A DNA stretch of 64,000 nt, from the NCBI GenBank assembly GCA_018267545.1, contig JAFDYG010000490.1, forward strand, positions 42,044 through 106,043. The letters run 5' to 3'. Source of the stretch: Bacteroidota bacterium. GTDB lineage: Bacteria; Bacteroidota; Bacteroidia; Chitinophagales; Chitinophagaceae. Below the pieces are notes generated by a model that worked only from the letters and a program-made list of their open reading frames with translations, did not search any database and had not been told where the DNA came from. Below are positions 2,805 to 22,787 of the stretch, in pieces; position 1 is the first letter of the stretch; the number at the start of each line of letters is the position of its first letter. Made by a program: the position numbers and the translations under genes.

Positions 2805-5234
2805 CTATTTCACGACATACCGTTGCCCCTTTTTGGTCTTGAGAACCACAGGCGCCTCATTGCCATTACGAACGATACAGTCGCCCCCATTCCGTGAAAA
2901 AATAGACGCCTTCACCAGCCGTCCACCTTTCCATTCCATATCCACCACAAATCCGCCCCTGGCGACAAGCCCCTTTACCGATCCATCCGCCCACGCATCC
3001 GGCAAGGCCGGCAGCAGGTGCACGTCCCCATCCTGGCTCTGTAACAACATCTCCGCAATCCCCGCCGTCCCTCCAAAATTCCCGTCGATCTGAAAAGGAG
3101 GATGCGCGTCGAACAGGTTCGGATAAGCTCCCCCACCTTCTCCATCGTATTCCACCACATTCTCCCTTGTCAGTCTCAACAAACGCCTAAAAAGCAGATA
3201 CGAATGATTCCCATCCATCAGTCTCGCCCAAAGATTGACCTTCCATGCCATACTCCAACCCGTCCCAACATCCCCACGCAAAATCAATGATTGCCGAACC
3301 GCCTTCGCCAGCTCCGGCGTCCGCAGCACCGATATGTCGTGCCCCGGATATAAAGAATACAGATGAGACACATGCCGGTGATGCGGGTCCGGCGAAGCAT
3401 AATCTTTATACCATTCCTGCAATTGCCCCTGACTACCGATCTGATAAGGAAACAACCGGCTCCGAACCTCCCTCAGCCGCGCGCTAAACACCGCATCTCC
3501 TTTCAATACCGAGTCTGCGGACAATAAATTATCGAACAAATCCCGCACAATCCCCATGTCCATCGTCGTAGCCACCGAAACATCGGCAACCTTCTTGTCC
3601 CCATAGATAAAGTCATTCTCCGGTGACATCGACGGAGCCGTAACCAGCCGCCCCTCCTTATCCGGGACCAGCCAGTCCAGCACGAATTGCGCAGCCCCCT
3701 TCATCAAAGGGTAAGCCGTATCCTTCAAAAAAGCCTTATTGCCCGTATACAAGTAGTGTTCCCATAAATGCCGAACCAGCCACGCTCCCCCCATCGGCCA
3801 GTTCGCCCATTTCGGCTCTCCCCCGCCCTTGTTCCCCACCGGCGTAGCCAGCGCCCATATATCACTGTTATGATGCACTACCCACCCATCCGCTCCATAA
3901 AATTCCTGAGCCGCCTTCCGCCCCGTCACCGACAGCGCTTGAATAAGCCCTACCAACGGAGTAGTCATCTCCGTCAAATTACACTCTTCTGCCATCCAGT
4001 AGTTCATCTGCACATTGATGTTCGTCGTATAGTTGGAGCTCCAGGGAGCCCGCAGCTCCGCATTCCAAATCCCCTGCAGATTGGCCGGCACCCCAGGCGT
4101 ACGGGAGCTGCTATAGAGCAGATATCGACCATACTGAAAGTACAAGGCCTCCAGTCCCGGGTCATTCCCGCCCTTCGTATAAGCCGACAGTCTTTCGTCG
4201 GTAGGCAGAGCGACAGCCCCTTGTCCCAGCCGAAGCAAAACCCGATCATAATATCGGTGCACATCCGCTAAATGTCCTTCCCACAGTTGCGCATAGGACT
4301 TCGCAGAACCGACTTTCAATAGAGACGACGCGATAACTTCCGCCTTCTCCAGACTCGGACAACGATCAAAACTCCAAAAGCCCGTCGCCATCGAAACATA
4401 AAGCACCACTTCCGACGCCTTGCTCACACTGATCCCACTCGTATCCATCCTCACCGTCCCATCCACACTCGTCGCCTTCGCCACCATCGCCCAGGACATT
4501 CCTCTGCAGGTATCTTTATCGTCATAGATAACCGGATCCTGACTATCCACATAGCTCGGCTCCACATGCGACGGTGCCTTTCCCCACATCTCATAAGCTC
4601 CCCCGACTAGCTTGTGTTTATTCCTCAACAAGCTCGAAGCAGAAATCTTCAGCTGCAACGCGCCTTTCTTGCTACAAGTCCATCGAACGACCATCATCTG
4701 ACCAAAAGCCGGAATAAACACTTCCCGCAAATATTCTACCCCACCCACTTTATACTTTGTCCGTACCACCGCATCCCGGATATTCAATTCCCGTTCGTAC
4801 CCCCCAGAATCACTTCCCCCAAAGTCTTGATGAATATGCAAATCCCCCAACGGCAAATAGCTCTCCGACCAAACTCCCTGCATCTTCCTCGCCAGCTTCT
4901 CCGCCGCAGGATAGTCCTCCTCGAACAAAGCCTTCCGCAAAGGAGCCAGATACCCCTTCGCCGAAGGATTGACCGTATCCCTCACCGGTCCACCCGACCA
5001 AAGCGACGACTCGTTCAATCCAATCACCTCATCCCCCACACGCCCATACACCATTCCCCCCAATCTTCCATTCCCCAACGGCAAGGCCTCCGTCCATACC
5101 GCCGCCGGCTGACGATACCATAGCCGCTCGTCTTTCACCTGCCGCTCATCCTTCACCTTTCGCCCGTCTTTCACCTGCGCAAAAATCCCGATCGTATTCC
5201 ACGTCAGGATGCTCAAAAAGAAAATTATCTTCAT
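2805..5234 (-). CDS. GH95 alpha-L-fucosidase (or alpha-L-galactosidase)
   Basis: 809 residues, usual family length. After a signal peptide (1-20) come three 6-residue repeats ([18 protein letters not shown], 20-37), then the GH95 N-terminal beta domain ([14 protein letters not shown], 51-64), the (alpha/alpha)6 barrel and a C-terminal beta domain. Catalytic residues known from Bifidobacterium AfcA appear to be conserved: the Asn pair in TNINVQ (N405, N407), the general acid in MSPEND (E539) and the Asp in QIDGNFGG (D717). GH95 enzymes release terminal alpha-1,2-fucose, a few release alpha-L-galactose. It is the last gene of the PUL operon. Its ATG overlaps the stop of the GH35-GH92 gene by 4 bases, which suggests translational coupling. 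The product is probably periplasmic. Confidence 0.93.
5124..5177 (-). repeat. Three in-frame 18-bp tandem repeats at the GH95 N-terminus
   Basis: On the coding strand the units are 5177-5160, 5159-5142 and 5141-5124. Each encodes (Q/K)VKD(G/E)R, just after the signal peptide of the GH95 enzyme. Units 1 and 3 differ at two bases; unit 2 differs more. The segment forms a charged linker before the catalytic fold and may vary in copy number between strains (inference). Confidence 0.8.
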
Positions 5235-8200
5235 GGATTTGTACTTTCCTTAGAATAGATCGTTAAAATATCCTTTTCCGATAAAGCCTCCACAAATATC
5301 CTCGGCCGCCGGAAACCACCTTTATAGAACCGCTGCCCGGGAAACTCCTCATTCCCCCCAACCATCCACACATTGTCCCCCCCTGATAAATGTACGTTTT
5401 TTTCCAGCGGCGTAAATCCCTTCGGCTGCCCGTCGATATAAACCCTTAAACCGCTTTTGTCGCACACACCCGCGATCAGGTGCCACTTTCCAACCCAGTC
5501 CGCTGGCAGATCGACCGTACAGTCCCCCCTTCCCCACCCGCCGGCAAAAAAGCTCAACTGCTTCCCATTCACCACCTGCAGCACATGATTGTCTCCATTA
5601 GTAAATACATCCACCAATCCACCAACCCTCTCTTCCGGACGCACCCAGATCATCATCGTCAACCGCTCACCCAAATCATCAAGACTCGGACTACCCTTTA
5701 TTCGAATAAGCCCACCCTCCGAAACAGCCTTGTTGCCAAAGCCCGACCGATCCACCAACCCGCTATCCAAATCCAAAACCAATGCATCGGCAGCCAACGA
5801 ATATACCCTAAATCGCTGCTCACGATCTCCAACCTTCAACACATGCCAACCCGGCTTTTCCCCCACAAGCACCATCGACCCGAAACGTTCTTCACCCGCA
5901 TCCAACCCCACCGTATCAATCCCCACAATCCTCCCATCCACCCGAACCGGCACCCGAAAATCCATTCCCTTCCACCCAATATTTTTCAAGCCATACTGCA
6001 GCTTAGAACTATCTTTAAACATCACCCGCATATCCACCTTATCGACAATCGGCAGCACCGGCAGCTTCTCCGAAGCCACCACCTCCACTATCCCAAAATC
6101 CAACGAATCCAACCTCAAATGTTGCTTCCCTTTTTTATACAATCGAACCCCGATACGCTCGTCAATTCTTTTTCCCTCCTCTACCAAAAAATTATACCCA
6201 GCCACTCGATATACCCCTGTGCTCCCCTTATTCTCCAAAACAAACCTTCCCGTCACCTCTTCTCCAGGCTTCACCCGGCGCCGGTCCACCGACAGACCGG
6301 AGACAACAAAAGATGGCTTCCGTCGATCACTCGCCCGCAAATCCGCCCCCTCCCTAAACACCAGCTCCCCACCCTTCATCACCTCGGCATGCGACAACTC
6401 CGTCGTACCAAACGGTTTCCCGTTCAATAACAAACTCCCCTTCTCCAACAACCGCCGCACTATCCAATCCTTTCCATTCTCCAAATGCACCGTTACCTTC
6501 CTAAAAACCGGTTCACCCAACGAATACACCGGACTTCCCGGGCACGAGGGAAAAAGACCCATCGCGCTAAACACATACCAGCTCGACATCGCCCCTAAAT
6601 CATCATTCCCGGGCAATCCCCCCGGCCGGTTACTATACCGCTCAGACATTATTTTCCGCACCCAATCGACAGTCATCCCATGCCGGTTGGCCTCATTGAA
6701 AAAATAAGGCAGGTGCAAAACAGTTTCATTGTCGAATACAATCCGTCCATCCCGCAGAGCAGAATCCAATCGTTGACAAAACGCCCCCTCTCCACCCATC
6801 AGATCGATCAACCCACCCGGGTCATGCGGCGCAAAGTAACTGTACACCCACGCATCTCCCTCTTTATAACCGGAATTCCCCAGCTTCACCCGAAACGAAT
6901 CCTCTACCCTCGGCAACAACAACAAAGAAGGTATATACAACAAATGACGATAAGCCATCGAACGCCGCTCCAAAGAATCGGCCATCGAACCATCCCCCAT
7001 CACCTTCCTTGCATACTGCGCCAGCACCCAGTCGTCATAGCCATACTCCACCGTCCTCGTCACCGACTCCGGATAGGTCATCGGAATATATCCAAGCTGG
7101 CTATAAACAGTCCTGTCATCCTGTACAAAAGGTCCCCGAACCAAACTCTTCAGCATAGCATCATATAATAAAGAACTATCCCCTATCCGGAGACCCTTCA
7201 ACCACGCATCCACAAGAATCGGCACAGAATGATTTCCCGTCATCGATTCCACCGGCAGATGACCGTCGCGCTTATATTTATCCATCATCGAAAGCAGCAT
7301 CTCCTTCTGCTTCTCCGGGTACAGCAAGCTCAACAAAGGATGTAAGGATCGATAGCTGTCCCACGGTGAAAATTGCCCGTACCCTCCACCAGGCATGCGC
7401 CAGGGCACTAATAAAGAATGATATAAGGCCGTATAAAAAATAGTCTTTTTGTCCACATCCTCATCTTCCACATCGACCACCGAAAGCGCCTTCCTCCATT
7501 CTTCCCTGGTCATCTCCCGCAGCGCATCAAACCCAACATTCCCAATCCTCGCCTCAACTACACGCTCATCAAAAGAATACACCACTCCCCCCTCCACCTC
7601 TTTCCGAGAGGTATACGCAACACTAAACTGCATACTGTCCCCCACAAAAATCTTAGAAGCCACACCTTCAGGAAAACTCACCCGAAACACACCCCCATTA
7701 TCACCCGCCGTCGCCTCCACCACCGTCCCATCATCCTTCAATCTTACCTTATAATACCCCGGCTCCGCCTCCTCATCCGCATGCGAAAAAGGCCTCCCCC
7801 TCCCATCCCCCGGCATCATATAAAACCGTCCCGCAGAACCATTCGGAAATCCACTGGCATGTCCATAACTGCTAAACCGTTCGATCACCGAATCCCCATA
7901 ATCATATCCCCCCTTCCTCGTCTCCGGCGTCAGTTGCCAATACCCCCAGGGCGCCACCGCACCCGGATAGGTCCCCCCCTCATTCCCCCATCGCGTATAG
8001 ACATCACTCTTCGTCGTACCAATAAAGGGATTGACATACCCCAGCAAATCCTCTTCCATCAGCTGCTTCGGCCGCGTCGCCCCCTCTTCTATGACAATGC
8101 TTACCTTCGAAGCATCCTTCCCATCCTCGTCAAAAATCCGCAAGCTATTCCTCCCCGAATGCAACCAGCACTCCGGTATATACAAACCCGGCGCAGGCAC

Positions 8201-10621
8201 TTTCTCCGGATACCGGCCCAGATTATACCCATTGACCCAAACCGAACCATGCCCAAGCCCCTCCGGCACTATCCTCCATATCGTCACATGCCGCGGATTC
8301 TCCGGCAACATAAAATCTGTACTCCACCAGCAAGGCCCCGGAGCCTTACCCGCACGATCCCCCATGCCCCCCTTCATCCTCCATCCACGAACCTCTACCG
8401 GCGACAAGAACGGAGAGAACCGTACCGGCTGATCAATCCCCCCTTCATTACTAAAGTTCTCGATGACCACCCTCAACCGTATCGGCCTCCGCATGGTATC
8501 GACTCCATCCAATAACACATTGAACGGAGAATTCCATCCCTCATGCCTCGTCAGCTTCCGGTCATTGATATAGACATCCGCATTTTCATCCACACTCGCA
8601 AATCTCAATTCCGCCTGCCGCACTCCCGCCGCCACTTCCGGCAGCACCGTCTCGAAGGTGGCAACCCCCTGCTTCTTATCGAATACGTCTTCTCCAATTT
8701 TATAGGGCCGGGAAACACCATCCTTCACCACTTTCCAATCCGTCAACGAAACCACGGCAGGCGCTCCCTTAACCAGCAATGTGCGACCAAACAATCCCTT
8801 GCGAGCTACCGAATCCAGTCCTCCAATGTACGCAGGTAGCTTGTCCCGCCCGTCATGCGCAGTAAAGACCGCCAACACATGCCGCCCCGCCCCTAATCTC
8901 AACCCGATCGCTCCGGCTTTTATATCCACCGAATCCATCGCCTTACCATCCACATATACCCTCACACGATCCGCCCCTTCCACCAACAACGTATATTCCC
9001 CTGACTTCGCTACCCTTACTTCCGTCCGATACCAGGCCGAAGCCGTGCTATCTCCGTCCGCCCCCATCTGCAACGGCCATTCACTATACTTCCAAGAACT
9101 CGCGTCATACCCCGGTTCCGCCACACCCGTCGTCGACACCCGCTTCCACTCCCCCACAACTACATGTTTTTCCAACTGTCCAGCCCATCTTACAGGCTTA
9201 TACTTCTTCGTATCTTCACCCGTATACAATAATGCCCCAACAGTATCCTCCGTCTCGAACCCCTCCTCTTTCATTTCCCCAACGTAACGAGGGCCAACCA
9301 CTATCTTATCTCCAATAATCCAACAACGATCCGCCGCTTCATCATTCATCACAAGCACCCTTACCTGCTTCCCCATCCAATATACCGAAGGCTCCCGACC
9401 CGCCGGCACCGTCACCTCGATCCCCCCGGTCGAAAACTCCATCCGCCCCTTACTCCCCGCAACCCCATACGCGATCAATGTAGTCACCTCTCCTTGCCGA
9501 ACTAACCCCAACAACGGCAAGCTATTCCCTACCATCCGCACATCTCCCGCCAGCAGGCAATCCTTCACCACCGGCACTTTCCCCGAAAAATCAACCTTCG
9601 CCCCGACAAAGCTCCGCGCAAACCAGGCCGCTTTCTTAAAAGCATAATAAATAGGCCGCAGATCACCCGCCTGCCCTACCGCCGCGCCATAATCATAAGA
9701 AGCCGCATCCTCATCGTTGTTCGTATACCCAAAGTTGCTCCCCCCATGCGCCATATAGTAGTTGTACCCGGCCCCGCCCCGCGCAATGATCTTCCAGGTC
9801 CGCTCCGCAAACGTCTTCGCTTCCTTCTCCCCTGACCCATACCCATTGTACCAAACACTCCAAAATTCCGTCGAAAACCACGGATTGGGCCGCGACGCAT
9901 CGTCCAGCGACACCGCATCTCCCGCCGGGTCATTCGCATGATGCAGCCCGCTAAAAAAATAAGGCACCTCCAAGCCCAGCGACAAAGCCTTCTGTTGCAG
10001 CCACGTAAAATAGCTATTCGGCATATCCGTCCCCCAGCCCAAAGGATGCTCATTCTCCAATTGCACCATAATGACCGAACCACCTTTATGCACTTGATTC
10101 CTCAGAACAATCGGCAGCAGCCTGTCGAAAAACAGTCCCACATATTTCTGAAATTCTTCGTTCGGTTCCCGAACCCGAAGTCCCGGCTTGAACTTCAGCC
10201 ACAACGGATAGCCCCCATTGTCCCACTCCGCACAGTAATAAGGCCCCACCCGTACGATCGAGTACATTCCCAGCTCCTGGACCAGTTTCAAAAACGCGCC
10301 CAAATCCTTTTCCCCACTAAACTCAAAAGCGCCCTCCCTCGGCTCATGCCAGTTCCAAAAGGTATAGACTTCCACACAGTTGAAACCACACCGCTGCAGC
10401 CGCAGTAATCTATCCCGCCACAACGCCCTCGGCACCCGCGCATATTCGATACCCGCCGATACCAGAAACGTCCGCTGTCCCTTTATAAAAAATCCCTTCT
10501 TGTCGAAATCGATTGAATTCCTCGCAGCGGCCGCCGCAGGAAAGATATGATCGTTCGGCTGCTGGGCGACGGCAAGTCCCATCCCCCAGCAACACAAAAG
10601 CAAACTATAAATTAGACGCAT
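5231..10621 (-). CDS. Giant exported GH35 beta-galactosidase / GH92 alpha-mannosidase / LamG fusion
   Basis: 1796 residues in one uninterrupted frame. Residues 1-19 are a signal peptide. Residues 40-340 are a GH35 barrel with acid/base E191 (in QLENE) and nucleophile E252 (in STEFW). Residues 350-845 hold beta-sandwich domains typical of GH35 enzymes, ending in a VNGYNLGRY galactose-binding motif. Residues 862-1430 are a GH92 module: VNPFIGT (863-869), [21 protein letters not shown] (1252-1261), [12 protein letters not shown] (1298-1309) and [12 protein letters not shown] (1335-1346), the last including candidate acidic base residues. Residues 1435-1605 look like Ig/CARDB domains and 1610-1790 like a LamG lectin fold. 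The GH92 part (about 570 residues) is shorter than stand-alone enzymes, mostly in its N-terminal domain. GH35 removes terminal beta-Gal; GH92 is a calcium-dependent exo-alpha-mannosidase. The start at 10621 overlaps the GH89 3' end by 17 bases. Confidence 0.9.
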
Positions 10622-12791
10622 ATTTCTTATAAAGCCCCTTGACTATCTCGATCGAATTGCCCGTAGGCTCCTCCGCATAGACCACACCCGTAGTATTGAC
10701 CCATTTCCATTCCCAATCCCTGATCGACTTCTCGAAGTCCGCCGTCTCCATCCGCGCCCCACGCCCCATCTTCCCCTTTAGGTACACAAAGAACTGCGCC
10801 CACCGCGGTTTATAAAAGTCCTTGACCAACCCCGCCCACTGCCTGCATGAATATTCGTGCAGCCCGCTTTCCTTATCCCCCCAGAGCGTGATCAGATCAC
10901 GAGCGTTCTTTTCATACAGGTCCTTCTCCGCCGCATCCACCCCACAACGACGCGCATCCCCGATCCATCGACCCAATAAAAAATCCTTTCGGGTAGCCAG
11001 CAGCGCATCCATATCGTCCATCAGCGCCAAAAACTCGGCCGTATATCGATCATAGTCCGCCTCGTTATGTTGCAGATAAGCCAGCACCCATTTCTGCTGT
11101 AATGGCAACGCATAGTTGGCAAGCACCTGCCGCGTGACATCCACCAGGTCGTACTGGAACCCATCACTGCCTCCCAACGAATCGGAAGCCTCCACCAACA
11201 GTCCCCAGGCCTTCGCCAGCTCCGCAGGCTGATAGTCCAGCACCGTTCTTATCCGGTCTCCCCAGGGCTCTATCTGAGGCCTCGATTGCAGGATCGACTC
11301 CGGCCCCCCTTCTCCAAGACCTCCCTTATAAACCGTTTCCGACAATATCTTCCAGGCGGCATTCGCCTTCGAGTTCTCAGCGCCATAACGCTGAAACGCA
11401 TATGATCGTAGCCACGACGATAGATCGATAACGCTATCCCTCCACACATTGTCCAGCATCAATTGATACAAGGCCGGATTCTGCTCGATACCCTCCGGCG
11501 TCAGCCCAATTCCCTTCATCGAACCCGAGACAGGACTGGCCAGCGCCTTCGCAGGCCCTTCCGCCACAGCCCCCATCCTGCCCCAAAGCGAGATATTCCC
11601 GCCAAAGTTGTGCAGCATGTTCCAGATCCACGGCTTGCCATAATAGGCATTGGTCCTCGTCCAGACCGGGTGACTTTCGCTATAAAGGTCCAGCACGATC
11701 ATCTGATCGTCCGGCACAGCTTTTAACAATGCCTGTATCTGCGGCCCTCTCCAATAAGCCGAGTCATAATGAAACATCCAGCCCTGCATGACCCAGATCG
11801 CCTTCGGGTCGGCGCCGGCCATAGAAGCAAAGACTTTTTTGCTCATCGAGCTCAGATAGGTAGAGTCGTCAGTAGGTGGGAGATTTTCGTTAAACGTATC
11901 GGCCGAATAGAAGTGATCGGTTCCATATTCCTGCGTCTGCGCCTCGATAAACTGGCGACCAATCTTCTCGAAGAGAGGGTCCCCCGGATCGAGAATATAA
12001 ACATCCGGAAATCCAGCCCCCCAGTTCGTCTTCTTCACCTTCGCCTGGGGATATCGCTGTACGAAGCTCGGCGGCACATGACCCGTAAACGAAGCCAGCA
12101 CCGGCTTCATCCCCATCGCCCGCTCAGCCCCAAGTATCTTCTTCTGCAATTCCCGGTGTGAGTCCATCCAGTGCTGCGGCAGCGGCCCACCCCAGGCATC
12201 GATATTCCCCATCCAGAACCAGCTGAAATACGCCGGCCCGCAAAAGAACTTGTCCAGCTCCCCATCGCTAAAGCCCATGGCCCTGTAGACCCGCTGCCAG
12301 ATCGCCTCCTCCCCCGTCAACGCCAGCGGCAGATTGATCCCATTCAGGGTCATCCAGTCGATCTCCCGCTGCCAGCGTTCCCAGTCCCACCAGGCCATCG
12401 AGTAATTGAACGTACAGTAGTTGATATAATACCGGTATGTATAAGGCGTCACTCGCCGCACTTTCCCCTTGACCACCGGCAGGACCGCCGGCAGTCGCAG
12501 CTCCCCTCCATTCCAAATCGATAAGCTATGACAGTATTCTCTTAAATAGCAATTTAGCGCCGAACCCACACTCAATCCATTGCTTCCCCGCAGCACGATC
12601 TTCCCCTTCCGGCTCTCTAATTCGAACACATCCTTCCCCTTTACAGGCGCCACATACTCCGCGACAAATGCCCCGGCATGCGAACCCGTTACCCGGGCAA
12701 TAAATGCAGTTACAGCATCCTTATCGATTTGTGAGTACCCATTTTTGATACCCACCAGTCCAAAAAAAATAAAAAATAACCGCGCTCTCAA
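10605..12791 (-). CDS. GH89 alpha-N-acetylglucosaminidase (NAGLU family)
   Basis: 728 residues with a signal peptide (1-20). The N-terminal alpha/beta domain (22-110) is followed by the GH89 barrel, marked by YRYYINYCTFNYSMAWWDWE and NGINLPLALTGEEAIW. Both catalytic glutamates of human NAGLU (E316, E446) have clear counterparts: E302 in ADTFNEN and E372 in LYSESHPVWTRT, the second followed by WNMLHNFGGN. The C-terminal helical domain is complete. Bacterial GH89 enzymes release alpha-linked GlcNAc, for example the alpha-1,4-GlcNAc caps of gastric-type mucin, or act on heparan-like termini. The gene begins with a 4-base overlap (ATGA) with the SusD stop, so it is coupled to the transporter pair. 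Confidence 0.94.
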   Translation of the reverse strand: MRARLFFIFFGLVGIKNGYSQIDKDAVTAFIARVTGSHAGAFVAEYVAPVKGKDVFELESRKGKIVLRGSNGLSVGSALNCYLREYCHSLSIWNGGELRLPAVLPVVKGKVRRVTPYTYRYYINYCTFNYSMAWWDWERWQREIDWMTLNGINLPLALTGEEAIWQRVYRAMGFSDGELDKFFCGPAYFSWFWMGNIDAWGGPLPQHWMDSHRELQKKILGAERAMGMKPVLASFTGHVPPSFVQRYPQAKVKKTNWGAGFPDVYILDPGDPLFEKIGRQFIEAQTQEYGTDHFYSADTFNENLPPTDDSTYLSSMSKKVFASMAGADPKAIWVMQGWMFHYDSAYWRGPQIQALLKAVPDDQMIVLDLYSESHPVWTRTNAYYGKPWIWNMLHNFGGNISLWGRMGAVAEGPAKALASPVSGSMKGIGLTPEGIEQNPALYQLMLDNVWRDSVIDLSSWLRSYAFQRYGAENSKANAAWKILSETVYKGGLGEGGPESILQSRPQIEPWGDRIRTVLDYQPAELAKAWGLLVEASDSLGGSDGFQYDLVDVTRQVLANYALPLQQKWVLAYLQHNEADYDRYTAEFLALMDDMDALLATRKDFLLGRWIGDARRCGVDAAEKDLYEKNARDLITLWGDKESGLHEYSCRQWAGLVKDFYKPRWAQFFVYLKGKMGRGARMETADFEKSIRDWEWKWVNTTGVVYAEEPTGNSIEIVKGLYKKYASNL

Positions 12792-14371
12792 TAATTGGGA
12801 TTTTGTTTGATCACCCCCTTGCTCTCATCGATAATCTGCTGAGGCAAGGGCATATAATAGTCCTTTGGCCTTACAAATGTACGCGCTGGAATGATAACTG
12901 AGCCATTATAGGGGGGCAGCGGAGAAGCCGCCTTGGGTTTGCTGACGATCGTATCCAGGTTGATCAGCTTGTCCTTGTCCCAACGCAGCAAATCCTGCCA
13001 ACGGGTGTTTTCTGCACCCAGCTCGACACGACGTTCGTGGATCAGCTGGGCCATCGTTGCTCCGCTTCTCGGCAGCAACCCGGCGCGGGTCCGCACTTTA
13101 TTCAACTCTGCATCCCCGCCGCCGGGACCATTCTGCCTTATTTTGGCCTCAGCAACCAGCAGATAGATGTCTGCCGTACGTAACAGCGGCTGCTTGAGAT
13201 TGAAGTCTATTTGTCCATTGTGAGCCGGGTTGCCGTCCGATACAAAGGCCGTATATTTTCGGACACAATAGCCCGTCGCCGACATGCTCGGCAGCATCCG
13301 TCCCGTAGACTGCCCTTCTTTCCCGGCAAACATTTGATAAGCATCCGGCGCACCGATGTCCACGATGTTCTTCTGATAAGGGATGGTATCCCCGACCGAA
13401 ACCAGCGTAGCCCGCTTACGAATGGTGTCCGCCGTCTCGAATTCATCGGCGAAGTTCTGCGTCGGCTGATGGAAACCCCATCCCTGCCAGGATCGGTTCG
13501 TAAAATACTGGCTGATAGCCGAGGTCGGAACGTTGGCGGTCAGCTGGCTGTTGTTCCATACCGCAAACAGTATCTCGGAATTGCTTTCCTGGTTGCCGAC
13601 GGTAAAGTTATCCGCGTAATTTGTAGCAAGCGCATAGTTGGGATCACTGATGACCTTCGTTCCATAGGTGACCGCATCCGCAAGACGGTCTTCAATCATA
13701 TACAGCTTACAAAGCATCCCCCACGCCGCACCCTTGCTCACCCTGCCCCTATCGGCATCCCCATAGGTCTCAGGCAGCAGATTCGCAGCTTGCAGAAAAT
13801 CGTTTTCAGCCTGCTTCCGAACGCTGTCGATCGACGATTTTGCTACATTGTAGTCCACCGCCGTTACATTCTTCTCGGTAATGATGGGCACGTCTCCATA
13901 GATCTCGCTCAGGATAAAGTAGGCATAGCCACGCAAAAAGTATGCTTCGCCCATCGAACGCTGCCTGATCGGATCGTCCATAACCGGCACCTTGGGAATA
14001 TAGATCAACGCATTGTTCGCCCTTCCGATCTGCTCATAGGCAAACGGCCAGGTAACGCCGATCAGCTGAAGAGTGGCATCCGCATTGAATCTCTCCACGG
14101 CCCAGAAATCGGAGTGGTCACCCGCTACACTGATATCGTCCGACTGGTCATCGTAAACATAGATATGGTGCCCGATATAGTCTTCCGTATACAAAATATT
14201 ATAGATCCCATTGATACCGGCCAGCACGTCGTTCTGGTTCCGCCAGTAGTTCCCGGTATTATACTGCCCGCTCTGCACCTGGTCCAGGGGGTGCTTGATA
14301 CAACCCGCAATCACAGCCGCAGCCGCCAGGGAAAGAATGCCAAGTATTATATAGTTGCGTCTCTTTTTCAT
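12788..14371 (-). CDS. SusD/RagB-family glycan-binding lipoprotein
   Basis: 527 residues. The N-terminus is a lipoprotein signal with the lipobox IAGC (C24). The TPR-like helical SusD N-terminal domain follows (NYWRNQNDVLAGINGIYN) with the family-typical AYFLRGYAYFILSEIYGDVPI segment (about 145-165). The C-terminal SusD/RagB region holds VRTRAGL and HERRVELGAENTRWQDLLRW, and the protein ends in a typical IKQNPNY. SusD proteins cap the SusC channel at the cell surface and capture oligosaccharides. It lies 16 bases after susC and overlaps the GH89 start. Sequence alone cannot name the ligand; the operon's enzymes point to a mixed Gal/GlcNAc/Man/Fuc glycan. Confidence 0.95.
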   Translation of the reverse strand: MKKRRNYIILGILSLAAAAVIAGCIKHPLDQVQSGQYNTGNYWRNQNDVLAGINGIYNILYTEDYIGHHIYVYDDQSDDISVAGDHSDFWAVERFNADATLQLIGVTWPFAYEQIGRANNALIYIPKVPVMDDPIRQRSMGEAYFLRGYAYFILSEIYGDVPIITEKNVTAVDYNVAKSSIDSVRKQAENDFLQAANLLPETYGDADRGRVSKGAAWGMLCKLYMIEDRLADAVTYGTKVISDPNYALATNYADNFTVGNQESNSEILFAVWNNSQLTANVPTSAISQYFTNRSWQGWGFHQPTQNFADEFETADTIRKRATLVSVGDTIPYQKNIVDIGAPDAYQMFAGKEGQSTGRMLPSMSATGYCVRKYTAFVSDGNPAHNGQIDFNLKQPLLRTADIYLLVAEAKIRQNGPGGGDAELNKVRTRAGLLPRSGATMAQLIHERRVELGAENTRWQDLLRWDKDKLINLDTIVSKPKAASPLPPYNGSVIIPARTFVRPKDYYMPLPQQIIDESKGVIKQNPNY

Positions 14372-14387: not shown

Positions 14388-17300
14388 TTAGAAATTCACC
14401 GTCGCTCCAACGGTAATGTTACGGGATTGAGGATACTGCGCTACGTCCACCCCACGCTGCAAGCCGGGAGTGACCGCGTACGGATTTTGAACACTAGGCC
14501 CCGAAGCCCCCGGATTGGTATATCCCAGCTCGGGAGTATATCCCTTATATCCGGTAATTGTAAAGGTATTGTAGCTGCTGACGTAGACCCGGATATCGGG
14601 AATCTTCGCACTTCCGATTTGAAGCTTTGGCAGGGTGTATCCGATCGAAACACTCTTCAACGTAAGATAAGCGCCATTTTGTACCCACATATCCGAAGAC
14701 CGGTAGTTGTTGTTCAGATTCTCGATCGACAGACGCGGAATGCTGTTGCTCGTATTCACCCCATGCCAGCGGCCGTTCTGCTCGGCATACCAGTTGAATA
14801 CCTGCGTAGCATCCAGACCCGCGAGACGGTCCGCATTGTACAGCGAAAAGCCCGTAGCGCCGGTGAAATTGAAAGCGAAGTCGAAACCCTTATAGTTTAA
14901 AGACCCATGGACGCCAAACTGAAAACGCGGATTGGGATCACCCAGTCTCGTCCGGTCCTTGTCATCGACCACGCCATCTCCGTTCAGGTCACGGAAATGC
15001 ACATCGCCAGGCTTAATGTCTCCCCTGTTTGGATCTTTCGCCACGTCCGCAGATTTGTCGATATCATCCTGCGTCTGATAAAGACCCGCCGTCTTGAACC
15101 CATAGAAAGAAGCCATCGGCTGCCCTTCATAAGTACGGGAGATATCGACGTTCTCACGGCCATAGATGGGGCCCGAGAGATATACATTGTCCCCGAATAG
15201 ACGAGTCACCTTATTGCGGATGATCGAACCATTCGCCCCGAATGAATACCCCAGCTTCCCGGCCGTATTCGAATAGTTGACTTCGATTTCTACCCCTTTA
15301 TTATTGATCTTGCCCAGGTTCAGGTCGGGCAGGGAAATATTCCCGCCATTGTCCGTCGTAAGACCATTTCCCCGCTGGGCGCCAAACGTCTCGACCAGCT
15401 GAAAAGGGATCAGCATGTCCGTCGTATTTTTATTGAAGTAGGTTACCGTTGCAGACAGATGATTGTTCAGCGTCGAAAGCTCCGCGCTGATATTGGTCAT
15501 GACCGACCGCTCCCAGGTAATATCCGGATTGGCGATGCTGATGACATAGGCGCCGTTTTGGTAGACCGTACCCGTGCCCGTGCTATAGCCGTATCCACCG
15601 CCGCCAAGACCGCCGCCGCCACCATACCCGATTCCGCTCAGGTACTGGAAGTCGCCGATATTCTGGTTACCCAGCTGCCCCCAGCCGCCCGTGATCTTGA
15701 GCGAATTGAGGAAATGGACGTTGTCCCGGAAAAAGTCCTCATCCGATACACGCCAGCCGGCCGAAAAAGCCGGGAAATAACCCCAACGCTTCCCAGGTGC
15801 AAACTTGCTGCTGCCATCCGCCCTGAAAGTCGCCGTCAGCAAATATTTGCTCATGAACGAGTAGTTGCCCCGGATAAAATACGACTGCAAACCGGCGGTC
15901 GGTGAGTTGAAGCCCGTGTTGCCGGCGCTGCTGCTGTTCCCCAGATCCAGCACACGCTGGTTGATGCTCGTATCGTCATATCCGATTCGCGAGGCATTGA
16001 AGTAATTTCCTTTAAAGGTCTGCGCAGAATAACCACCCGTCAACGTAAGATTGTGCTGACCAAAGAGCTTGTTATAAGTAAGGTAGTATTCTTCCAGGAA
16101 GGACCAGCTCTTCCCGGAACCACGCGTCAACGTAGACGAGCCCGGTCCGCGAGCCTGTTCCGGCATCGCATTATCGAACTGATAGAGGTCTTCCGTCATC
16201 TGGTCGTAACCATAGTTCGCCCGGATCTTCAGCCCCTTGATGATTTCCAGCTCGGCATATCCATTCGCGAGAATCCGGTCGAATTGATCATGCTTGTCTG
16301 TTTCCTGAGCCGTCGCCACAGGATTGTTGATATCTCCCAGTCCTGAAACGGACGCGCCATAGCTGCCATCCGGATTGAATATCGGGATCCCCGGGTTGAA
16401 TCGTAACGCGCTCCACACCAGTCCCGCCTGCGTAGACTTGGTATTGGGAGACGCGCCATCCGTATGCGAGTACACCAGGTTCTCCCCAACTTTCAACCGG
16501 TCGAAGATCTTATGCTCCGAATTGATCCTTGCGCTGTAACGTTTAAAAAAGGAATTGGGAATCATCCCCTTCTGGTCGAAATAGTTGCCGGAGAAGCTAT
16601 AGGTGCTGGAATTATTCCCGCCCCGCAGCGCAAAGTCCGCATTCTGCGTATGCCCCGTGGTAAACAGAGCTCTCTGCCAGTCGGTCTTTTGCGTAGCATA
16701 GGTATCTCCCGACCAAACGGTGGGAATCGTCAATCCATCGTTCGTATAAGCCTCCCGTTTCAGCTTGACCAGATCCGGAGCCGTCAGCACGTCCAAATAT
16801 TTTACCGCCTTGTCGACGCCATAATAATAGCCCACGCTCGTCTTCATCTGCTCGCCGAAACTCCCCTTCTTCGTCGTGATCAGCACCACTCCATTAGCAG
16901 CACGGCTGCCATAGATCGCCGAAGAGCTCGCGTCTTTCAGGATTTCCACCGAAGCAATATCGTTCGGATTGACATCATTTAGTCCATTGGCCGGTACCCC
17001 ATCGATCACGACCAGCGGATCTGAGTTGTTCAACGTACCCGTACCCCGGATACGGATGCTCGGGTTGCTGCCGGGGCTGCCGTCATCCCGGATAATGTCT
17101 ACACCGGAAGCACGACCTTGCAAAGCGCCCGCCGCATTGCTCACCGGTAGGTTCTTGAAGTCGTCCCCCTTTACCGTACTGATACTGCCCGTTACGTCTC
17201 TCTTACGCTGTGCACCATACCCCACGACGACCACGTCCGCCAGACCCGTCGCATTGGGCTGCAGCTTGACCGAAAGGTTATTCGATCCATCCAACCCAAC

Positions 17301-17837
17301 CCGCTGCTCTTTATACCCGACATAGCTGATCACCAGCTCTTCGCCGGTGGCCGCATCGATGCTAAAATTTCCGTTCTCGTCCGTCTGAACAGTACGTGCT
17401 CCGCTGCCGAGCTTTATCGTTACTCCTCCAAGCGGCTTACCACTCTCATCCGTCACTTTTCCTTTAATAGCCGTATCCGGTCTCGACGGGTCAGCCGCCT
17501 GTCTCAACGGAGTGATGATAACCTTCCGATCGTCCTTGATCGTATAGCCAAACTTCCCCGACAGCACCTTATCCAGTATACTGTTCAGCGAAGCATCCGT
17601 AACATCCAGGTCTATTTTACCCAGCTGCCGCAGATAGTCGTTATTATAAAAGAACCGGTACCTGCTTTCCTGCTGGATAGCATTGAAGATCTCATGCGCC
17701 CCCACCTGCTTGACGTGGAAGCTGAACTTTTCCTGGGAATAGCCATGAGCGGACACTTGCAGACAGAATGCCATGAGCAAAGCGAGGCTCATTTTCATTG
17801 GCAAAAATTTCAGCATAACTCTAGTTTTGGTCGACAA
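14388..17837 (-). CDS. SusC/RagA TonB-linked outer-membrane transporter with STN signalling domain
   Basis: 1149 residues: signal peptide (to about 34), secretin/TonB short N-terminal (STN) domain (38-110), carboxypeptidase-regulatory-like domain (125-193), a VVVVGYG segment (202-208), plug domain (about 210-330, with VVIDGVPANG and ILKDASSSAIYGSRAANGV), then the beta-barrel ending in ITVGATVNF with a C-terminal aromatic residue. The STN domain is the feature that lets SusC proteins signal to a FecR-type anti-sigma, and the FecR and sigma genes lie directly upstream, so the three form a trans-envelope induction circuit. The ATG at 17837 overlaps the FecR 3' end by 17 bases. An ATG at 17816, 4 bases after the FecR stop, also gives a good signal peptide and may be the true start. 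Confidence 0.95.
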   Translation of the reverse strand: MSTKTRVMLKFLPMKMSLALLMAFCLQVSAHGYSQEKFSFHVKQVGAHEIFNAIQQESRYRFFYNNDYLRQLGKIDLDVTDASLNSILDKVLSGKFGYTIKDDRKVIITPLRQAADPSRPDTAIKGKVTDESGKPLGGVTIKLGSGARTVQTDENGNFSIDAATGEELVISYVGYKEQRVGLDGSNNLSVKLQPNATGLADVVVVGYGAQRKRDVTGSISTVKGDDFKNLPVSNAAGALQGRASGVDIIRDDGSPGSNPSIRIRGTGTLNNSDPLVVIDGVPANGLNDVNPNDIASVEILKDASSSAIYGSRAANGVVLITTKKGSFGEQMKTSVGYYYGVDKAVKYLDVLTAPDLVKLKREAYTNDGLTIPTVWSGDTYATQKTDWQRALFTTGHTQNADFALRGGNNSSTYSFSGNYFDQKGMIPNSFFKRYSARINSEHKIFDRLKVGENLVYSHTDGASPNTKSTQAGLVWSALRFNPGIPIFNPDGSYGASVSGLGDINNPVATAQETDKHDQFDRILANGYAELEIIKGLKIRANYGYDQMTEDLYQFDNAMPEQARGPGSSTLTRGSGKSWSFLEEYYLTYNKLFGQHNLTLTGGYSAQTFKGNYFNASRIGYDDTSINQRVLDLGNSSSAGNTGFNSPTAGLQSYFIRGNYSFMSKYLLTATFRADGSSKFAPGKRWGYFPAFSAGWRVSDEDFFRDNVHFLNSLKITGGWGQLGNQNIGDFQYLSGIGYGGGGGLGGGGYGYSTGTGTVYQNGAYVISIANPDITWERSVMTNISAELSTLNNHLSATVTYFNKNTTDMLIPFQLVETFGAQRGNGLTTDNGGNISLPDLNLGKINNKGVEIEVNYSNTAGKLGYSFGANGSIIRNKVTRLFGDNVYLSGPIYGRENVDISRTYEGQPMASFYGFKTAGLYQTQDDIDKSADVAKDPNRGDIKPGDVHFRDLNGDGVVDDKDRTRLGDPNPRFQFGVHGSLNYKGFDFAFNFTGATGFSLYNADRLAGLDATQVFNWYAEQNGRWHGVNTSNSIPRLSIENLNNNYRSSDMWVQNGAYLTLKSVSIGYTLPKLQIGSAKIPDIRVYVSSYNTFTITGYKGYTPELGYTNPGASGPSVQNPYAVTPGLQRGVDVAQYPQSRNITVGATVNF

Positions 17838-18870
17838 TTAATTTTACCTGGTTACTGTCTATTTTATAATTGAACTTCGTCGTCATTTTTAGGATGTCCA
17901 GGGCTTGCTGCAGGCTTTCTTTCTCGAAAATACCGCTCACATGCTGCCTGCGCAGTCCCTCGCTTTCAAACGCTATATGCACCGCATACCGCCGCTCCAT
18001 CTGCCGCACCACCTCTTCAAAAGGCTCATTATTGAAAATGAGCTTGTCTTCTACCCAGGCCGTCTCCGGAACCACTTCTTCGTGCTCGGTCTGGGGCAAC
18101 GATAGCACCTGATAACGCAATTCGTTCTCCGTAAGGCCTTTTTCTTTATTGGTATTGGCAACCGTCAGCTTCTCATTCGGCGAAAGAAGTATTTTCTTCT
18201 CGGGGTCTTCATTCAGAATCACCTGTATCTTTCCGCTAATCAAGGTCGCAGAAACCTGCGCGTCCTCCCGGTAAGCCTTTACGTCGAATCTTGTACCCAG
18301 AACCCGCACCGTAATCTTCCCCGTATGTACAAAGAAGGGTTGATGAGTCTGCTGCGCCACATCGAAAAAAGCCTCCCCTTCCAGCTCCACTTCCCTGGTC
18401 TTCCCGACAAAAGAAGAAGGATAGATCAGCCGGCTTCCCGCATTCAACCACACCTTCGTCCCATCCGCCAGCACCAGCATCGACTTGCCCCCATAACCCA
18501 CCTGCGTGGAATTACTGGCCACCACGGGGGGCCGCCGGCTCACCCGGTAATAAGCGACAAATCCTCCTAATAGCACGATCAAAAGCGAAGCGGCCGCAAC
18601 CCATACTTCCCAACGGGGCATCCTCCTTACTGTCGCCCCCTTGTTCATTTTCTCCGCCAAATGCGCCCAACCGCTGCTCGCCAGATCTTCGGCCGGCAAA
18701 GGCTTCTCCATACTTTTCAATGAAGACGCCACCTCCGACAGATATGAAAAAGACGTGTGAACGGACAACAATTGCTCCAGTTCCTCCAGCTCCTCGGGCA
18801 AAGCCACCTTCCCCATCTTCTTCGCCATTAATTCGATAATCCGTTGATGTGCAGTTGAAAAATCTCTCAT
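17821..18870 (-). CDS. FecR-family anti-sigma factor with DUF4974 region
   Basis: 349 residues. The cytoplasmic N-terminal region (1-87) would bind the sigma factor. One transmembrane helix (about 89-108) leads into the periplasmic FecR domain (about 125-225, with GGKSMLVLADGTKVWLNAGS and VELEGEAFFDVAQ), then the Bacteroidota C-terminal DUF4974-like domain (about 272-345) that resembles an STN fold. It should hold the ECF sigma inactive until the STN domain of the SusC transporter reports substrate. It starts 18 bases after the sigma stop and overlaps susC, so all three are co-expressed. Confidence 0.95.
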   Translation of the reverse strand: MRDFSTAHQRIIELMAKKMGKVALPEELEELEQLLSVHTSFSYLSEVASSLKSMEKPLPAEDLASSGWAHLAEKMNKGATVRRMPRWEVWVAAASLLIVLLGGFVAYYRVSRRPPVVASNSTQVGYGGKSMLVLADGTKVWLNAGSRLIYPSSFVGKTREVELEGEAFFDVAQQTHQPFFVHTGKITVRVLGTRFDVKAYREDAQVSATLISGKIQVILNEDPEKKILLSPNEKLTVANTNKEKGLTENELRYQVLSLPQTEHEEVVPETAWVEDKLIFNNEPFEEVVRQMERRYAVHIAFESEGLRRQHVSGIFEKESLQQALDILKMTTKFNYKIDSNQVKLIVDQN

Positions 18871-18888: not shown

Positions 18889-19464
18889 TTATTCCGCATT
18901 TTTCTTAAAAGAAACGGAAAAATTTTTCGGCAGGGAGGGGCGGAGCGCCTCCTCCAGCTTCTTCAGGGCAATGGTCAGCTGGGTAGTGACCGTCTTATAA
19001 GAGATGTCAAGAATACTGGCCACTTCGGCAGCCGACAAGCCATCTTCTTTTACTAGTTTGAATATCAATTTACAACGACCCGGCAGTCCGTCGATCGACG
19101 CCTCGATTTTCCGCCTCAGCTCGTCGGTGACCAGCAGCTGCTCCGGGTCGGGACTCAAATAGAAATGATGAACCACCTGGTTCTCCAGGTCGATCGTAAC
19201 CCCCTTAACTTTTCGAAGATAATTGGCCGCCGTATTCCGGACCGCTACATAAAGATACACCTGTATATTGTCGATCGAATTCAGCTTCGACCGGTTCTGC
19301 CATAGCTTCAAAAAAACATCGTTGACGATCTCCTCCGCCTGTTCGCGGCTTTGAATAAAAGTAAAAGCAAATTGGAACAGCTTGAATACATGCTCGGTAT
19401 AGAACTGCCGGAAAGCAGTCTCATCATTTTCGAATTGTATCCGATACAGTAGTGCGGAGGACAT
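18889..19464 (-). CDS. ECF-type RNA polymerase sigma factor
   Basis: 191 residues from the chosen start. Region 2 (about 10-80) includes FAFTFIQSREQAEEIVNDVFLKLWQ and the promoter-opening stretch YVAVRNTAANYL. Region 4 (about 120-175) holds LPGRCKLIFKLVKEDGLSAAEVASIL and ISYKTVTTQL, the helix-turn-helix for the -35 element. An upstream in-frame ATG at 19503 would overlap the end of the VCBS gene by 29 bases. The ATG at 19464 lies 10 bases after that stop and begins MSSALLYRI, a normal ECF N-terminus, so I prefer it. It should activate this PUL together with the FecR and SusC proteins. Confidence 0.93.
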   Translation of the reverse strand: MSSALLYRIQFENDETAFRQFYTEHVFKLFQFAFTFIQSREQAEEIVNDVFLKLWQNRSKLNSIDNIQVYLYVAVRNTAANYLRKVKGVTIDLENQVVHHFYLSPDPEQLLVTDELRRKIEASIDGLPGRCKLIFKLVKEDGLSAAEVASILDISYKTVTTQLTIALKKLEEALRPSLPKNFSVSFKKNAE

Positions 19465-19474
19465 AGATGGTGTT

Positions 19475-22400: not shown

Positions 22401-22759
22401 ACGTCCGCCATCACCGTCCCCGTCTTCCACCTGGAACGCCCCGCAACTCCTGCTTTCCCCGTCACATCCTCAAATTTAAACTCACCCTTATTCAGATACA
22501 GCTTGTCCGGCCCCATATTGGCGGTAAAGTATAAATCGGGCAACCCATCCCCATCCACATCTCCCACCGCAACTCCGCCGCCATTATAGATATACTCGTA
22601 GGTTAGTACATTGTAGTCTTCATTTTCCTTGATGTCATTTCGGAAATCGATATGCGTTTCCGAAGCAGACAGCTCCGTAAAGACGGTTTCTTTCTTGGCA
22701 CTGCAAGAGACCAGGCTACCAATCAAAAAAAGGCCGAATCCGGCTACAGCAAGTTTCAT
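19475..22759 (-). CDS. VCBS/FG-GAP repeat lipoprotein with ASPIC/UnbV domain
   Basis: About 1094 residues from the ATG at 22759, which opens a lipoprotein signal MKLAVAGFGLFLIGSLVSC. Upstream in-frame ATGs at 22789 and 22816 only add a tail before this signal, and 22789 overlaps the start of the divergent gene. I count 13 calcium-binding-type repeats of the form DxDxDGxxD, such as DVDGDGLPD, DMDNDGDLD and DFDGDGLQD, spread over two beta-propeller-like halves. An ASPIC/UnbV segment sits between them (NTFGMGAKVSVV to VVRWPSGKV). The family is exported and often found beside SusC/SusD genes in Bacteroidota, with no settled function; glycan or protein binding at the cell surface is likely (inference). 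It is the first gene of the PUL operon and ends 10 bases before the sigma gene. Confidence 0.85.
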   Translation of the reverse strand: MKLAVAGFGLFLIGSLVSCSAKKETVFTELSASETHIDFRNDIKENEDYNVLTYEYIYNGGGVAVGDVDGDGLPDLYFTANMGPDKLYLNKGEFKFEDVTGKAGVAGRSRWKTGTVMADVNGDGLLDLYVCYSGPGTDVERSNELYINNGVKDGVPRFTESAKAYGLDAPGTYTTTVSFFDMDNDGDLDLFMVNHAAMFYNPFYNTDQLRAKRNSQAGNRLYRNDNGHFTDVSEQARIYGSGLNFGLSVSISDVNNDGWADIYTTNDYDERDFLYLNNHDGTFREVLDKAVGHLSEFAMGSDIADYNNDGLPDIMVLDMLPESNHRQKLLRGADTYDKYTMRVDHGLGHQQMRNTLQLNRGVDSSGMPVFSEVGQLAGVSATDWSWAPLFADFDNDGWKDLFVSNGILRDITNLDFVKYTSGYSSNYKEVGGDKKEMWKLLQDMPSTPLTNYMFRNNHELGFTDVTKEWGITGKGIHDGAVYADLDNDGDLDLVVNNLNDGVMVYRNNGAGGHYLRLQLRGEGKNTFGMGAKVSVVSAHLSQEQEEYTSRGFQSSVDPVMHVGLGGDSVASLVVRWPSGKVISMKEVRADTLLVLDEREGNVLPDGSSKVVSGFRDVTAGSGVKFVHSQAPTIDFKISPLLPFQVSKTGPSVAKGDVNGDGLEDLFIGASAGYESQLYLQTKEGKFVLAADQPWNQSKEYTNSDALLFDADGDGDLDLYLVSGGADYPLNDKHYQDRFFQNDGKGHFRLLVDALPAEVVSGSCVRAADIDKDGLPDLFVGGYVQPGLFPAPPESMILKNRSKGGQIRFEKDVSLADCGMVADALWMDLNKDGWMDLVVAGPFMPVSVFENHTGKLVNQTKEYGLDSTRGWWCRLAAVGDDIIAGNLGLNTQFQAGPSTPLTITYGDFDKDGVMDPMLCYYKDGKSYPYCTRDELFDQMPVLQKKFSRYADYADAQLTDLFTAEQLATGKTVSIQEMRSLLLRRDGKRFRPEALPVEAQMSPVNGIVVRDFDGDGLQDLLLAGNFYPLRAQQGPLDAGMGILLKRSARGSFVPVANEGIRLSMMGDIRNITSVKTAAGLLIVAVKNNGPVQLVRP

Positions 22760-22787
22760 GAACCACAATATTAGTGTATTTTTATGC

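What the first reader, a model, noticed from the sequence alone, without database searches (positions are those of the whole stretch)
5231..10621. One 1796-residue chain joins GH35, GH92, Ig-like and LamG modules
Exo-beta-galactosidase and exo-alpha-mannosidase activities are normally on separate proteins. Here both modules keep their key motifs: GH35 E191 and E252; GH92 EGDAW at 1254-1258, NETVLH at 1298-1303 and GNDDLG at 1338-1343. The two are joined at about residue 850 without a break in frame. The GH92 part is about 150-200 residues shorter than stand-alone enzymes, and the C-terminal LamG fold adds a likely binding site. A two-activity trimming enzyme would suit a branched glycan with Gal-capped and mannose-bearing arms, such as an N-glycan.
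Basis: partly seen in the sequence, partly recalled or inferred. Interest (0 to 1): 0.75.

Follow-up and report, generated by a model that had tools for sequence, protein, structure and literature searches.

The report
Soil bacterium's fused sugar-trimming double enzyme
A bacterium makes one long protein that joins two sugar-clipping enzymes and a sugar-binding part, and some close relatives have joined the same neighbouring enzymes, even three in one chain, which suggests that they clip one shared and still unidentified glycan in turn.

Summary
It is no assembly error: genomes G031 and G021 hold the same chain. It lies in a SusC-SusD-GH89-GH35-GH92-GH95 locus. Of 33 genomes of the genus, 12 hold this GH92-LamG subfamily; in 6 it is fused to GH35, and in 3 of these GH89 is fused too (2668-2713 aa). 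A tree of the locus needs at least three changes at the GH35-GH92 junction. The family, order and phylum samples showed no fusion outside the genus in the rows listed. Most members outside the genus lack GH89 and GH35 neighbours. The subfamily keeps the GH92 acid and an NDD base motif, but lacks the loop with BT3130 Trp390 (-1 subsite) and the 580-loop of alpha-1,2-mannosidases, so its specificity is probably not alpha-1,2. Most likely the chain is a periplasmic, tethered exo-enzyme trimming one imported oligosaccharide stepwise; an N-glycan is only one candidate substrate. New variant of a known kind; interest moderate.

The parts
5231..10621 (-). GH35-GH92-LamG fusion protein, 1796 aa; ATG at 10621
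   Evidence: same layout in L043 and L044
10562..10621 (-). predicted signal peptide (about residues 1-20), judged by eye
   Evidence: translation; no signal peptide program was run
9629..10492 (-). GH35 catalytic domain (residues 44-331), E191 and E252
   Evidence: Pfam PF01301 1.5e-73; both glutamates invariant in 12 of 12 rows
8147..8335 (-). BetaGal_gal-bd domain (residues 763-825), end of the GH35 half
   Evidence: Pfam PF21467 2.2e-13
8042..8089 (-). junction (residues about 845-860), short linker without a signal peptide; unfused relatives have a separate GH92 gene with its own signal-like N terminus
   Evidence: junction sequences, by eye; for G032
7631..8038 (-). GH92 N-terminal domain, matched over positions 1-146 of 236 only (residues 862-997)
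   Evidence: Pfam PF17678 8.8e-26
6353..7558 (-). GH92 catalytic domain (residues 1022-1423); E1254 acid, N1339-D1340-D1341 base motif; lacks the BT3130 Trp390 loop and the 580-loop
   Evidence: Pfam PF07971 3.2e-108
5702..6334 (-). all-beta region, possibly CARDB/Ig-like (residues about 1430-1640)
   Evidence: one relative of four stretches scanned, L039, PF07705 29.9 bits; strands in model m83122669adda, low confidence over its first 94 residues
5267..5671 (-). Laminin_G_3 / ConA-like domain (residues 1651-1785)
   Evidence: Pfam PF13385 2.8e-15; Foldseek matches to jelly-roll folds
10605..12791 (-). NAGLU (GH89), separate gene here; its end overlaps the start of the fusion gene by 17 nt; fused to GH35 in G002, G007, G009, G014 and G032
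2805..5234 (-). GH95, overlaps the end of the fusion gene by 4 nt
12788..14371 (-). SusD-like
14388..17837 (-). SusC-like TonB-dependent transporter
17821..18870 (-). FecR-type anti-sigma
18889..19503 (-). ECF-type sigma factor (Sigma70 regions 2 and 4)

Best explanation
The chain is a secreted, probably periplasmic, two-active-site exo-glycosidase of a SusC/SusD polysaccharide-utilization locus. SusC/D imports an oligosaccharide. The separate GH89 removes a terminal alpha-GlcNAc, the GH35 half then removes the beta-galactose so exposed, and the GH92 half removes an alpha-linked mannose-type sugar. LamG and the beta region hold the substrate near the sites, and GH95 removes an alpha-L-fucose or alpha-L-galactose side unit. 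Joining the enzymes fixes their 1:1 ratio and shortens the path between sites. Shown: the fusion, its recurrence, the locus, the retained catalytic residues and the missing GH92 loops. Inferred: location, order of action, sugars released, role of LamG. The GH92 half is probably not an alpha-1,2-mannosidase; an alpha-1,3-like or new specificity is more likely.
For: One frame with the five domains over Pfam cut-offs. Where a genome has all three genes in one locus they keep the order GH89, GH35, GH92 and occur in every state of joining: separate (G026, G023, G030, G135), GH89=GH35 (G014, G032), GH35=GH92 (window, G031, G021), all three (G002, G007, G009). At least 3 changes at the GH35-GH92 junction over 12 scored rows and 2 at GH89-GH35 over 14 scored rows. 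Catalytic residues are invariant in the rows aligned. NG86 dN/dS between the window and G031 is about 0.12 for GH35 and 0.18 for the GH92 catalytic domain (dS near saturation). Acid Glu and NDD are kept; per PMC12858847 (passages) DED is characteristic of alpha-1,2 enzymes while NDD or NED occur in alpha-1,3 ones. The 580-loop is absent. The fusion gene overlaps its neighbours by 17 and 4 nt.
Against: No activity is known for any member. The three enzymes are not always together. Of the eight genomes outside the genus with a strong GH92-LamG match, five (G418, G134, G299, G423, G040) show neither GH89 nor GH35 in the 18-20 kb read, and three (G282, G320, G428) show GH89 without GH35. In the genus G008 has GH89 and GH92 without GH35, G027 has GH89 and GH35 without GH92 near, and G012 has GH35 in another SusC/D locus. 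The loop with the -1 subsite Trp is missing, so mannose may not be the sugar cut. The structure model of the GH92 half failed (mean pLDDT 40.6), so the pocket could not be inspected.
Confidence: 0.55

Rival explanations
1. The GH92 half is a decaying or repurposed module: it has lost active-site loops and now serves as a binding or spacer domain, so the chain has one activity (GH35).
For: It is among the two shortest of the subfamily (564 residues, G031 562, against 612-752 in the seven unfused rows); part of the GH92N profile and the Trp390 loop are missing; in the window, G031 and G021 a further loop before the FSPWD segment is lost.
Against: The acid Glu, NDD, Asp353 and Met400 equivalents and the NE...H residues are invariant in 13 of 13 rows; dN/dS about 0.18 for the catalytic domain; the Trp390 loop is also absent in the unfused rows, so its loss did not follow from fusion.
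Confidence: 0.2
2. Neutral joining: overlapping operon genes lost a stop by drift; the fusion has no benefit over separate enzymes.
For: Neighbouring genes overlap by 4 to 17 nt in several genomes, which makes joining easy; fused and unfused states coexist in one genus.
Against: The six joined GH35-GH92 junctions read all lack an inner signal peptide (by eye), keep the active sites, and persist in species with 46-65% identity to the window chain; joining changed at two different junctions.
Confidence: 0.25
3. One reading: an N-glycan trimming enzyme for Gal-capped and mannose-bearing arms.
For: GH35, GH92 and GH95 here, and GH20 fused to GH89 in G030, are types that can act on complex N-glycans (recalled knowledge).
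Against: GH89 points to alpha-GlcNAc, which is uncommon on N-glycans (recalled); an HGSNAT-like gene lies beside GH92-LamG in three genomes; no endo-glycosidase or PNGase among the 34 proteins of the window and its left flank that were scanned (not every ORF was scanned).
Confidence: 0.2
4. Assembly or frameshift artefact joining two genes.
For: The assembly is in 553 contigs.
Against: Same chain in G031 and G021 and longer chains in G002, G007 and G009; continuous linker without a signal peptide.
Confidence: 0.01

Closest known systems
GH92 Ca2+-dependent exo-alpha-mannosidases (BT3130, BT3965, BT3990)
   Same: Two-part GH92 match, catalytic acid Glu (Glu535 of BT3130 = E1254), Asp353 = D1088, Met400 = M1127, NDD base motif
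   Different: 138-146 residues shorter; no Trp390 loop (-1 subsite, O4), Cys399 replaced by Ser, no 580-loop with His584-Glu585 and no Pro-Trp pair; carries a C-terminal beta region and LamG
GH35 beta-galactosidases (e.g. PDB 3d3a, 6eon)
   Same: Catalytic domain over most of the profile with both glutamates, C-terminal galactose-binding domain
   Different: C-terminally joined to GH92; 288 residues matched to 314 of 319 profile positions
GH89 alpha-N-acetylglucosaminidases (PDB 4xwh, human, and 2vc9, C. perfringens; organisms recalled)
   Same: The neighbour gene matches over residues 26-724 of 728
   Different: Joined to GH35, to GH35-GH92 or to GH20 in relatives
Multi-catalytic glycoside hydrolases (e.g. 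CelA GH9-GH48, named in the abstract start of PMC6892212)
   Same: Two or more catalytic modules in one chain with non-catalytic beta domains
   Different: There cellulose-acting modules; here families known as exo-acting (recalled) with a likely stepwise order

Membership tests
GH35 | Pfam catalytic domain over cut-off | tested here: met
   248.6 bits, cut-off 27
GH35 | two catalytic glutamates | tested here: met
   E191 and E252 invariant in 12 of 12 rows; their roles as acid and nucleophile are recalled
GH35 | beta-galactosidase activity | not testable with these tools
   needs an assay
GH92 | GH92 profile matches over cut-off | tested here: met
   N-domain 91.6 bits (cut-off 34.5), catalytic domain 363.1 bits (24.6); TIGR01180 366.4 bits, cut-off 249.55
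GH92 | N-terminal domain of usual extent (a common feature, not taken as defining) | tested here: inconclusive
   matched only over 1-146 of 236 positions; 1-142 and 1-143 in L039 and L045; the rest is shortened or too diverged
GH92 | catalytic acid Glu and base Asp | tested here: met
   E1254 and D1340-D1341 invariant in 13 of 13 rows; roles from PMC12858847 passages
GH92 | -1 subsite residues Asp353, Trp390, Met400 of BT3130 | tested here: inconclusive
   Asp and Met kept, Trp390 loop absent; 24 of 28 comparison GH92 loci have a Trp in that segment
GH92 alpha-1,2-mannosidases | His-Glu of the 580-loop, Pro-Trp motif, DED base motif | tested here: not met
   loop absent, no Pro-Trp pair in the 13 rows (L045 has Trp-Pro), NDD instead of DED
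GH92 | Ca2+-dependent exo-alpha-mannosidase activity | not testable with these tools
   needs an assay
LamG / ConA-like domain | Laminin_G_3 profile and jelly-roll fold | tested here: met
   57.2 bits, cut-off 27.6; Foldseek matches of the model to jelly-roll folds
SusC/D polysaccharide-utilization locus | adjacent SusC and SusD with glycoside hydrolases and regulator | tested here: met
   same gene order in relatives

The most novel reading that the evidence does not exclude
GH89-GH35-GH92-LamG chains, of which the window protein is the two-enzyme form, are assembly-line exo-glycosidases: the module order from N to C terminus is the order in which sugars are removed from one unrecognised glycan. 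The GH92 module has a new specificity allowed by the opened -1 (O4) and +1 sites, for example an O4-substituted or non-manno sugar.
Probability: 0.2. Interest if true: 0.65.

Novelty: new variant of a known kind. Interest (0 to 1): 0.45.

Why it matters
Repeated joining of the same three glycosidase families in one genus is strong circumstantial evidence that they serve one substrate there. This gives a direct way to look for that glycan: test what GH89, GH35 and GH92 remove together. It also offers natural pairs of fused and unfused sets for asking whether tethering exo-enzymes speeds stepwise trimming. The GH92 subfamily without the -1 tryptophan loop and the +1 loop may extend the known range of the family.

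Tried and rejected
Artefact: rejected because of the independent genomes. Alpha-1,2-mannosidase: rejected on motifs. Degenerate GH92: kept as a rival, not favoured.

Structure of the GH92 half: AlphaFold with a 4-row alignment gave mean pLDDT 40.6 and was not used. The beta and LamG part gave 61.7. Its Foldseek matches are jelly-roll proteins at 12-17% identity in the 50 rows shown, among them a GH43 enzyme, laminin LG domains and many neurotoxin binding domains; no functional meaning is given to them.

Open-frame lengths (such as 2869 for G030) disagree with my ORF scan. G030 has stops and a further gene between GH35 and GH92, so I used the ORF scan.

Literature: seven searches on these families together listed 12 of 12, 2 of 2, 1 of 1, 0, 12 of 20, 0 and 12 of 22 papers. 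No title or abstract start that I saw reports GH35 with GH92, or GH89 with GH35, in one chain. I opened none of those papers, so this is weak evidence of absence. One search (GH92 mechanism, 12 listed) gave the two papers of which I read passages: PMC5930347 and PMC12858847. (invertebrate glycans, 10 of 123 listed) led nowhere.

A general count of GH35 with GH92 in one chain outside this subfamily was not possible: listings are capped.

Rows left out: in the tree, loci without NAGLU (L047, L053, L054, L070, L073-L076, L078-L082) and second copies of the same genomes (L039-L042) were not used; GH35-GH92 joining was not scored for L049, L052, L055, L069, L071 and L072, nor GH89-GH35 joining for L049, L069, L071 and L072. 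GH92-LamG paralogues of 734-852 bits (G008, G030, G014, G007, G027, G397) were not counted as subfamily members, nor was G135 (831 bits), although it has the full locus unfused.
Full report
What is there. The ORF at 10621..5231 on the minus strand is one frame of 1796 aa. Pfam gives, in order, GH35, BetaGal_gal-bd, GH92N, GH92 and Laminin_G_3, all over their curated cut-offs (its residue numbers are one lower than those of the full chain). The gene overlaps the upstream NAGLU (GH89) gene by 17 nt and the downstream GH95 gene by 4 nt. Upstream lie SusD, SusC, FecR and a sigma factor of ECF type, so this is a polysaccharide-utilization locus with GH89, GH35-GH92 and GH95. No further glycoside hydrolase was found among 20 other window proteins scanned or six on the other side; not every ORF was scanned.

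The fusion is real and recurrent. I laid out 20 loci from 15 genomes (four of the loci are second copies of genomes G002, G014, G007 and G032, judged by equal contig lengths) and 14 more loci. Where all three genes lie in one locus the order is GH89, GH35, GH92-LamG, in four states. Separate: G026, G023, G135 (with a further ORF between GH35 and GH92), and G030, where GH89 is instead fused to GH20 and a membrane-protein gene lies between GH35 and GH92. GH89=GH35 with GH92 apart: G014 and G032; for G032 the GH35 end with its stop was read on the contig that holds GH92. GH35=GH92 with GH89 apart: the window, G031, G021. In the 11 separate GH92 genes read, GH92 has its own signal-like N terminus; in the six joined chains it has none (by eye).

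Against a fixed trio: of the eight genomes outside the genus with strong GH92-LamG matches, G418, G134, G299, G423 and G040 show neither GH89 nor GH35 in the 18-20 kb read, and G282, G320 and G428 show GH89 but no GH35. In the genus G008 lacks GH35, G027 lacks GH92 near its GH89-GH35, and G012 has GH35 in another SusC/D locus. So the link with GH89 and GH35 is a feature of this genus and G135, not of the whole GH92 subfamily.

How common. In the genus, 12 of 33 genomes hold the subfamily above 1300 bits, and 6 of these 12 are fused to GH35. In a sample of 394 genomes of the family, 12 hold it above that score: four of the genus (the window and G009 fused, G008 and G026 not) and eight others in frames of 1081-1104 aa. 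In a sample of 395 of the phylum three do: the window, G040 (frame 1102) and G805 (1131). A junction query in 396 genomes of the order matched in 146; among the rows listed only the window spans both halves, and all other frames are 1117 aa or shorter (the list was cut). These searches are centred on this subfamily; unrelated GH35-GH92 chains elsewhere could be missed.

Tree. A tree of concatenated NAGLU and SusD (18 rows) places the window with G031 (100/100) and G021 (97/97), next to the unfused G135 (83/84). The least number of changes is 3 for GH35-GH92 joining (12 rows scored) and 2 for GH89-GH35 (14 rows scored). The count cannot tell gain from loss. The outgroup rows have no GH35, so they do not settle it, but G026 and G135 are unfused.

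The GH92 module. From the window-6f8z alignment and the residue numbers in PMC5930347 (passages), chain 6f8z fits BT3130 with an offset of 16: Glu535, Trp390, Cys399, Met400 and Asp353 all fall on the right letters (counted by hand). On this map Glu535 = E1254, Asp353 = D1088 and Met400 = M1127. Trp390 lies in an eight-residue stretch that is absent, and Cys399 is S1126. The profile of 13 members gives the same gap. PMC5930347 states that Trp390 binds O4 of the inhibitor in the -1 subsite and that these contacts are fully conserved between BT3130 and BT3965. In 28 comparison GH92 loci, 28 of 28 are longer than the subfamily at that place and 24 of 28 have a Trp in the segment (L004, L005, L006 and L007 do not). 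At the 580-loop 22 of 28 are longer, in three (L003, L028, L031) the match breaks there with about 27-33 residues between its two parts, and L004, L007 and L030 are not longer in the counted segment. So the Trp390-loop gap marks this subfamily, fused or not; the 580-loop gap is rarer elsewhere but not unique. PMC12858847 (passages) links His-Glu, Pro-Trp and DED to alpha-1,2 enzymes and reports NDD or NED in alpha-1,3 ones; this subfamily has NDD and no 580-loop. The window, G031 and G021 have lost a further loop. The part from GH92N to residue 1422 has 562-613 residues in the six fused rows and 612-752 in the seven unfused ones; shared ancestry may explain part of this.

Is it active? Catalytic positions are invariant in the rows aligned. 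NG86 dN/dS between the window and G031 is 0.139/1.158 for GH35, 0.261/1.485 for the GH92 catalytic domain and 0.558/1.450 for the beta region. dS is near saturation, so these are rough. They favour two working enzymes with a loosely constrained spacer before LamG.

Substrate. GH89 implies a terminal alpha-GlcNAc, GH35 a beta-Gal, GH92 an alpha-Man or similar, GH95 an alpha-L-Fuc or L-Gal; these family activities are recalled knowledge. Relatives add GH20 fused to GH89 (L051). Beside GH92-LamG in G282, G030 and G805 lies an HGSNAT_cat-like membrane protein (Pfam on the first two; tblastn for the third), which would fit an alpha-glucosamine that must first be acetylated. No copy was found in the window; the copies in its genome lie on other contigs. 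An N-glycan, an alpha-GlcNAc-capped mucin-type glycan, a GPI-type glycan and a microbial exopolysaccharide all remain possible.

Verdict. It is a new variant of multi-catalytic glycoside hydrolases. What adds interest is the repeated fusion, up to three enzymes, and the changed GH92 pocket.

Noticed in passing
L051:13348-17802 and L055:1412-5530 (G030, G018): The GH89 gene carries a GH20 C-terminal domain: Pfam-confirmed in L051 (1484 aa); in L055 (1372 aa) judged from the similar translated sequence only.
   Followed up: partly
L051:8634-9770, L069:10274-11404, L083:4758-5882: HGSNAT_cat-like membrane acyltransferase gene beside GH92-LamG (Pfam on L051 and L069; L083 by tblastn); in G282 and G030 the locus also holds GH89, a pairing that recalls lysosomal heparan sulfate breakdown.
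   Followed up: partly
L002:697-4389 (own genome, contig C417): Another GH92 fusion: GH92 followed by CelD_N and GH9 in one frame; GH92 frames of similar length occur in G004, G021 and G029, not examined.
   Followed up: partly
L007 (own genome, contig C17): GH92 in a frame of 1562 aa with an N-terminal part without a Pfam match in the stretch held; it lacks the usual LP-W-CMxG segment.
   Followed up: no
window 19475-22816: FG-GAP/ASPIC-UnbV repeat protein next to the sigma factor; a homologue lies in the same place in L043 and L052.
   Followed up: no
L049, L069, L071, L072: The same locus type with GH89 and GH92-LamG but no GH35 beside them.
   Followed up: partly
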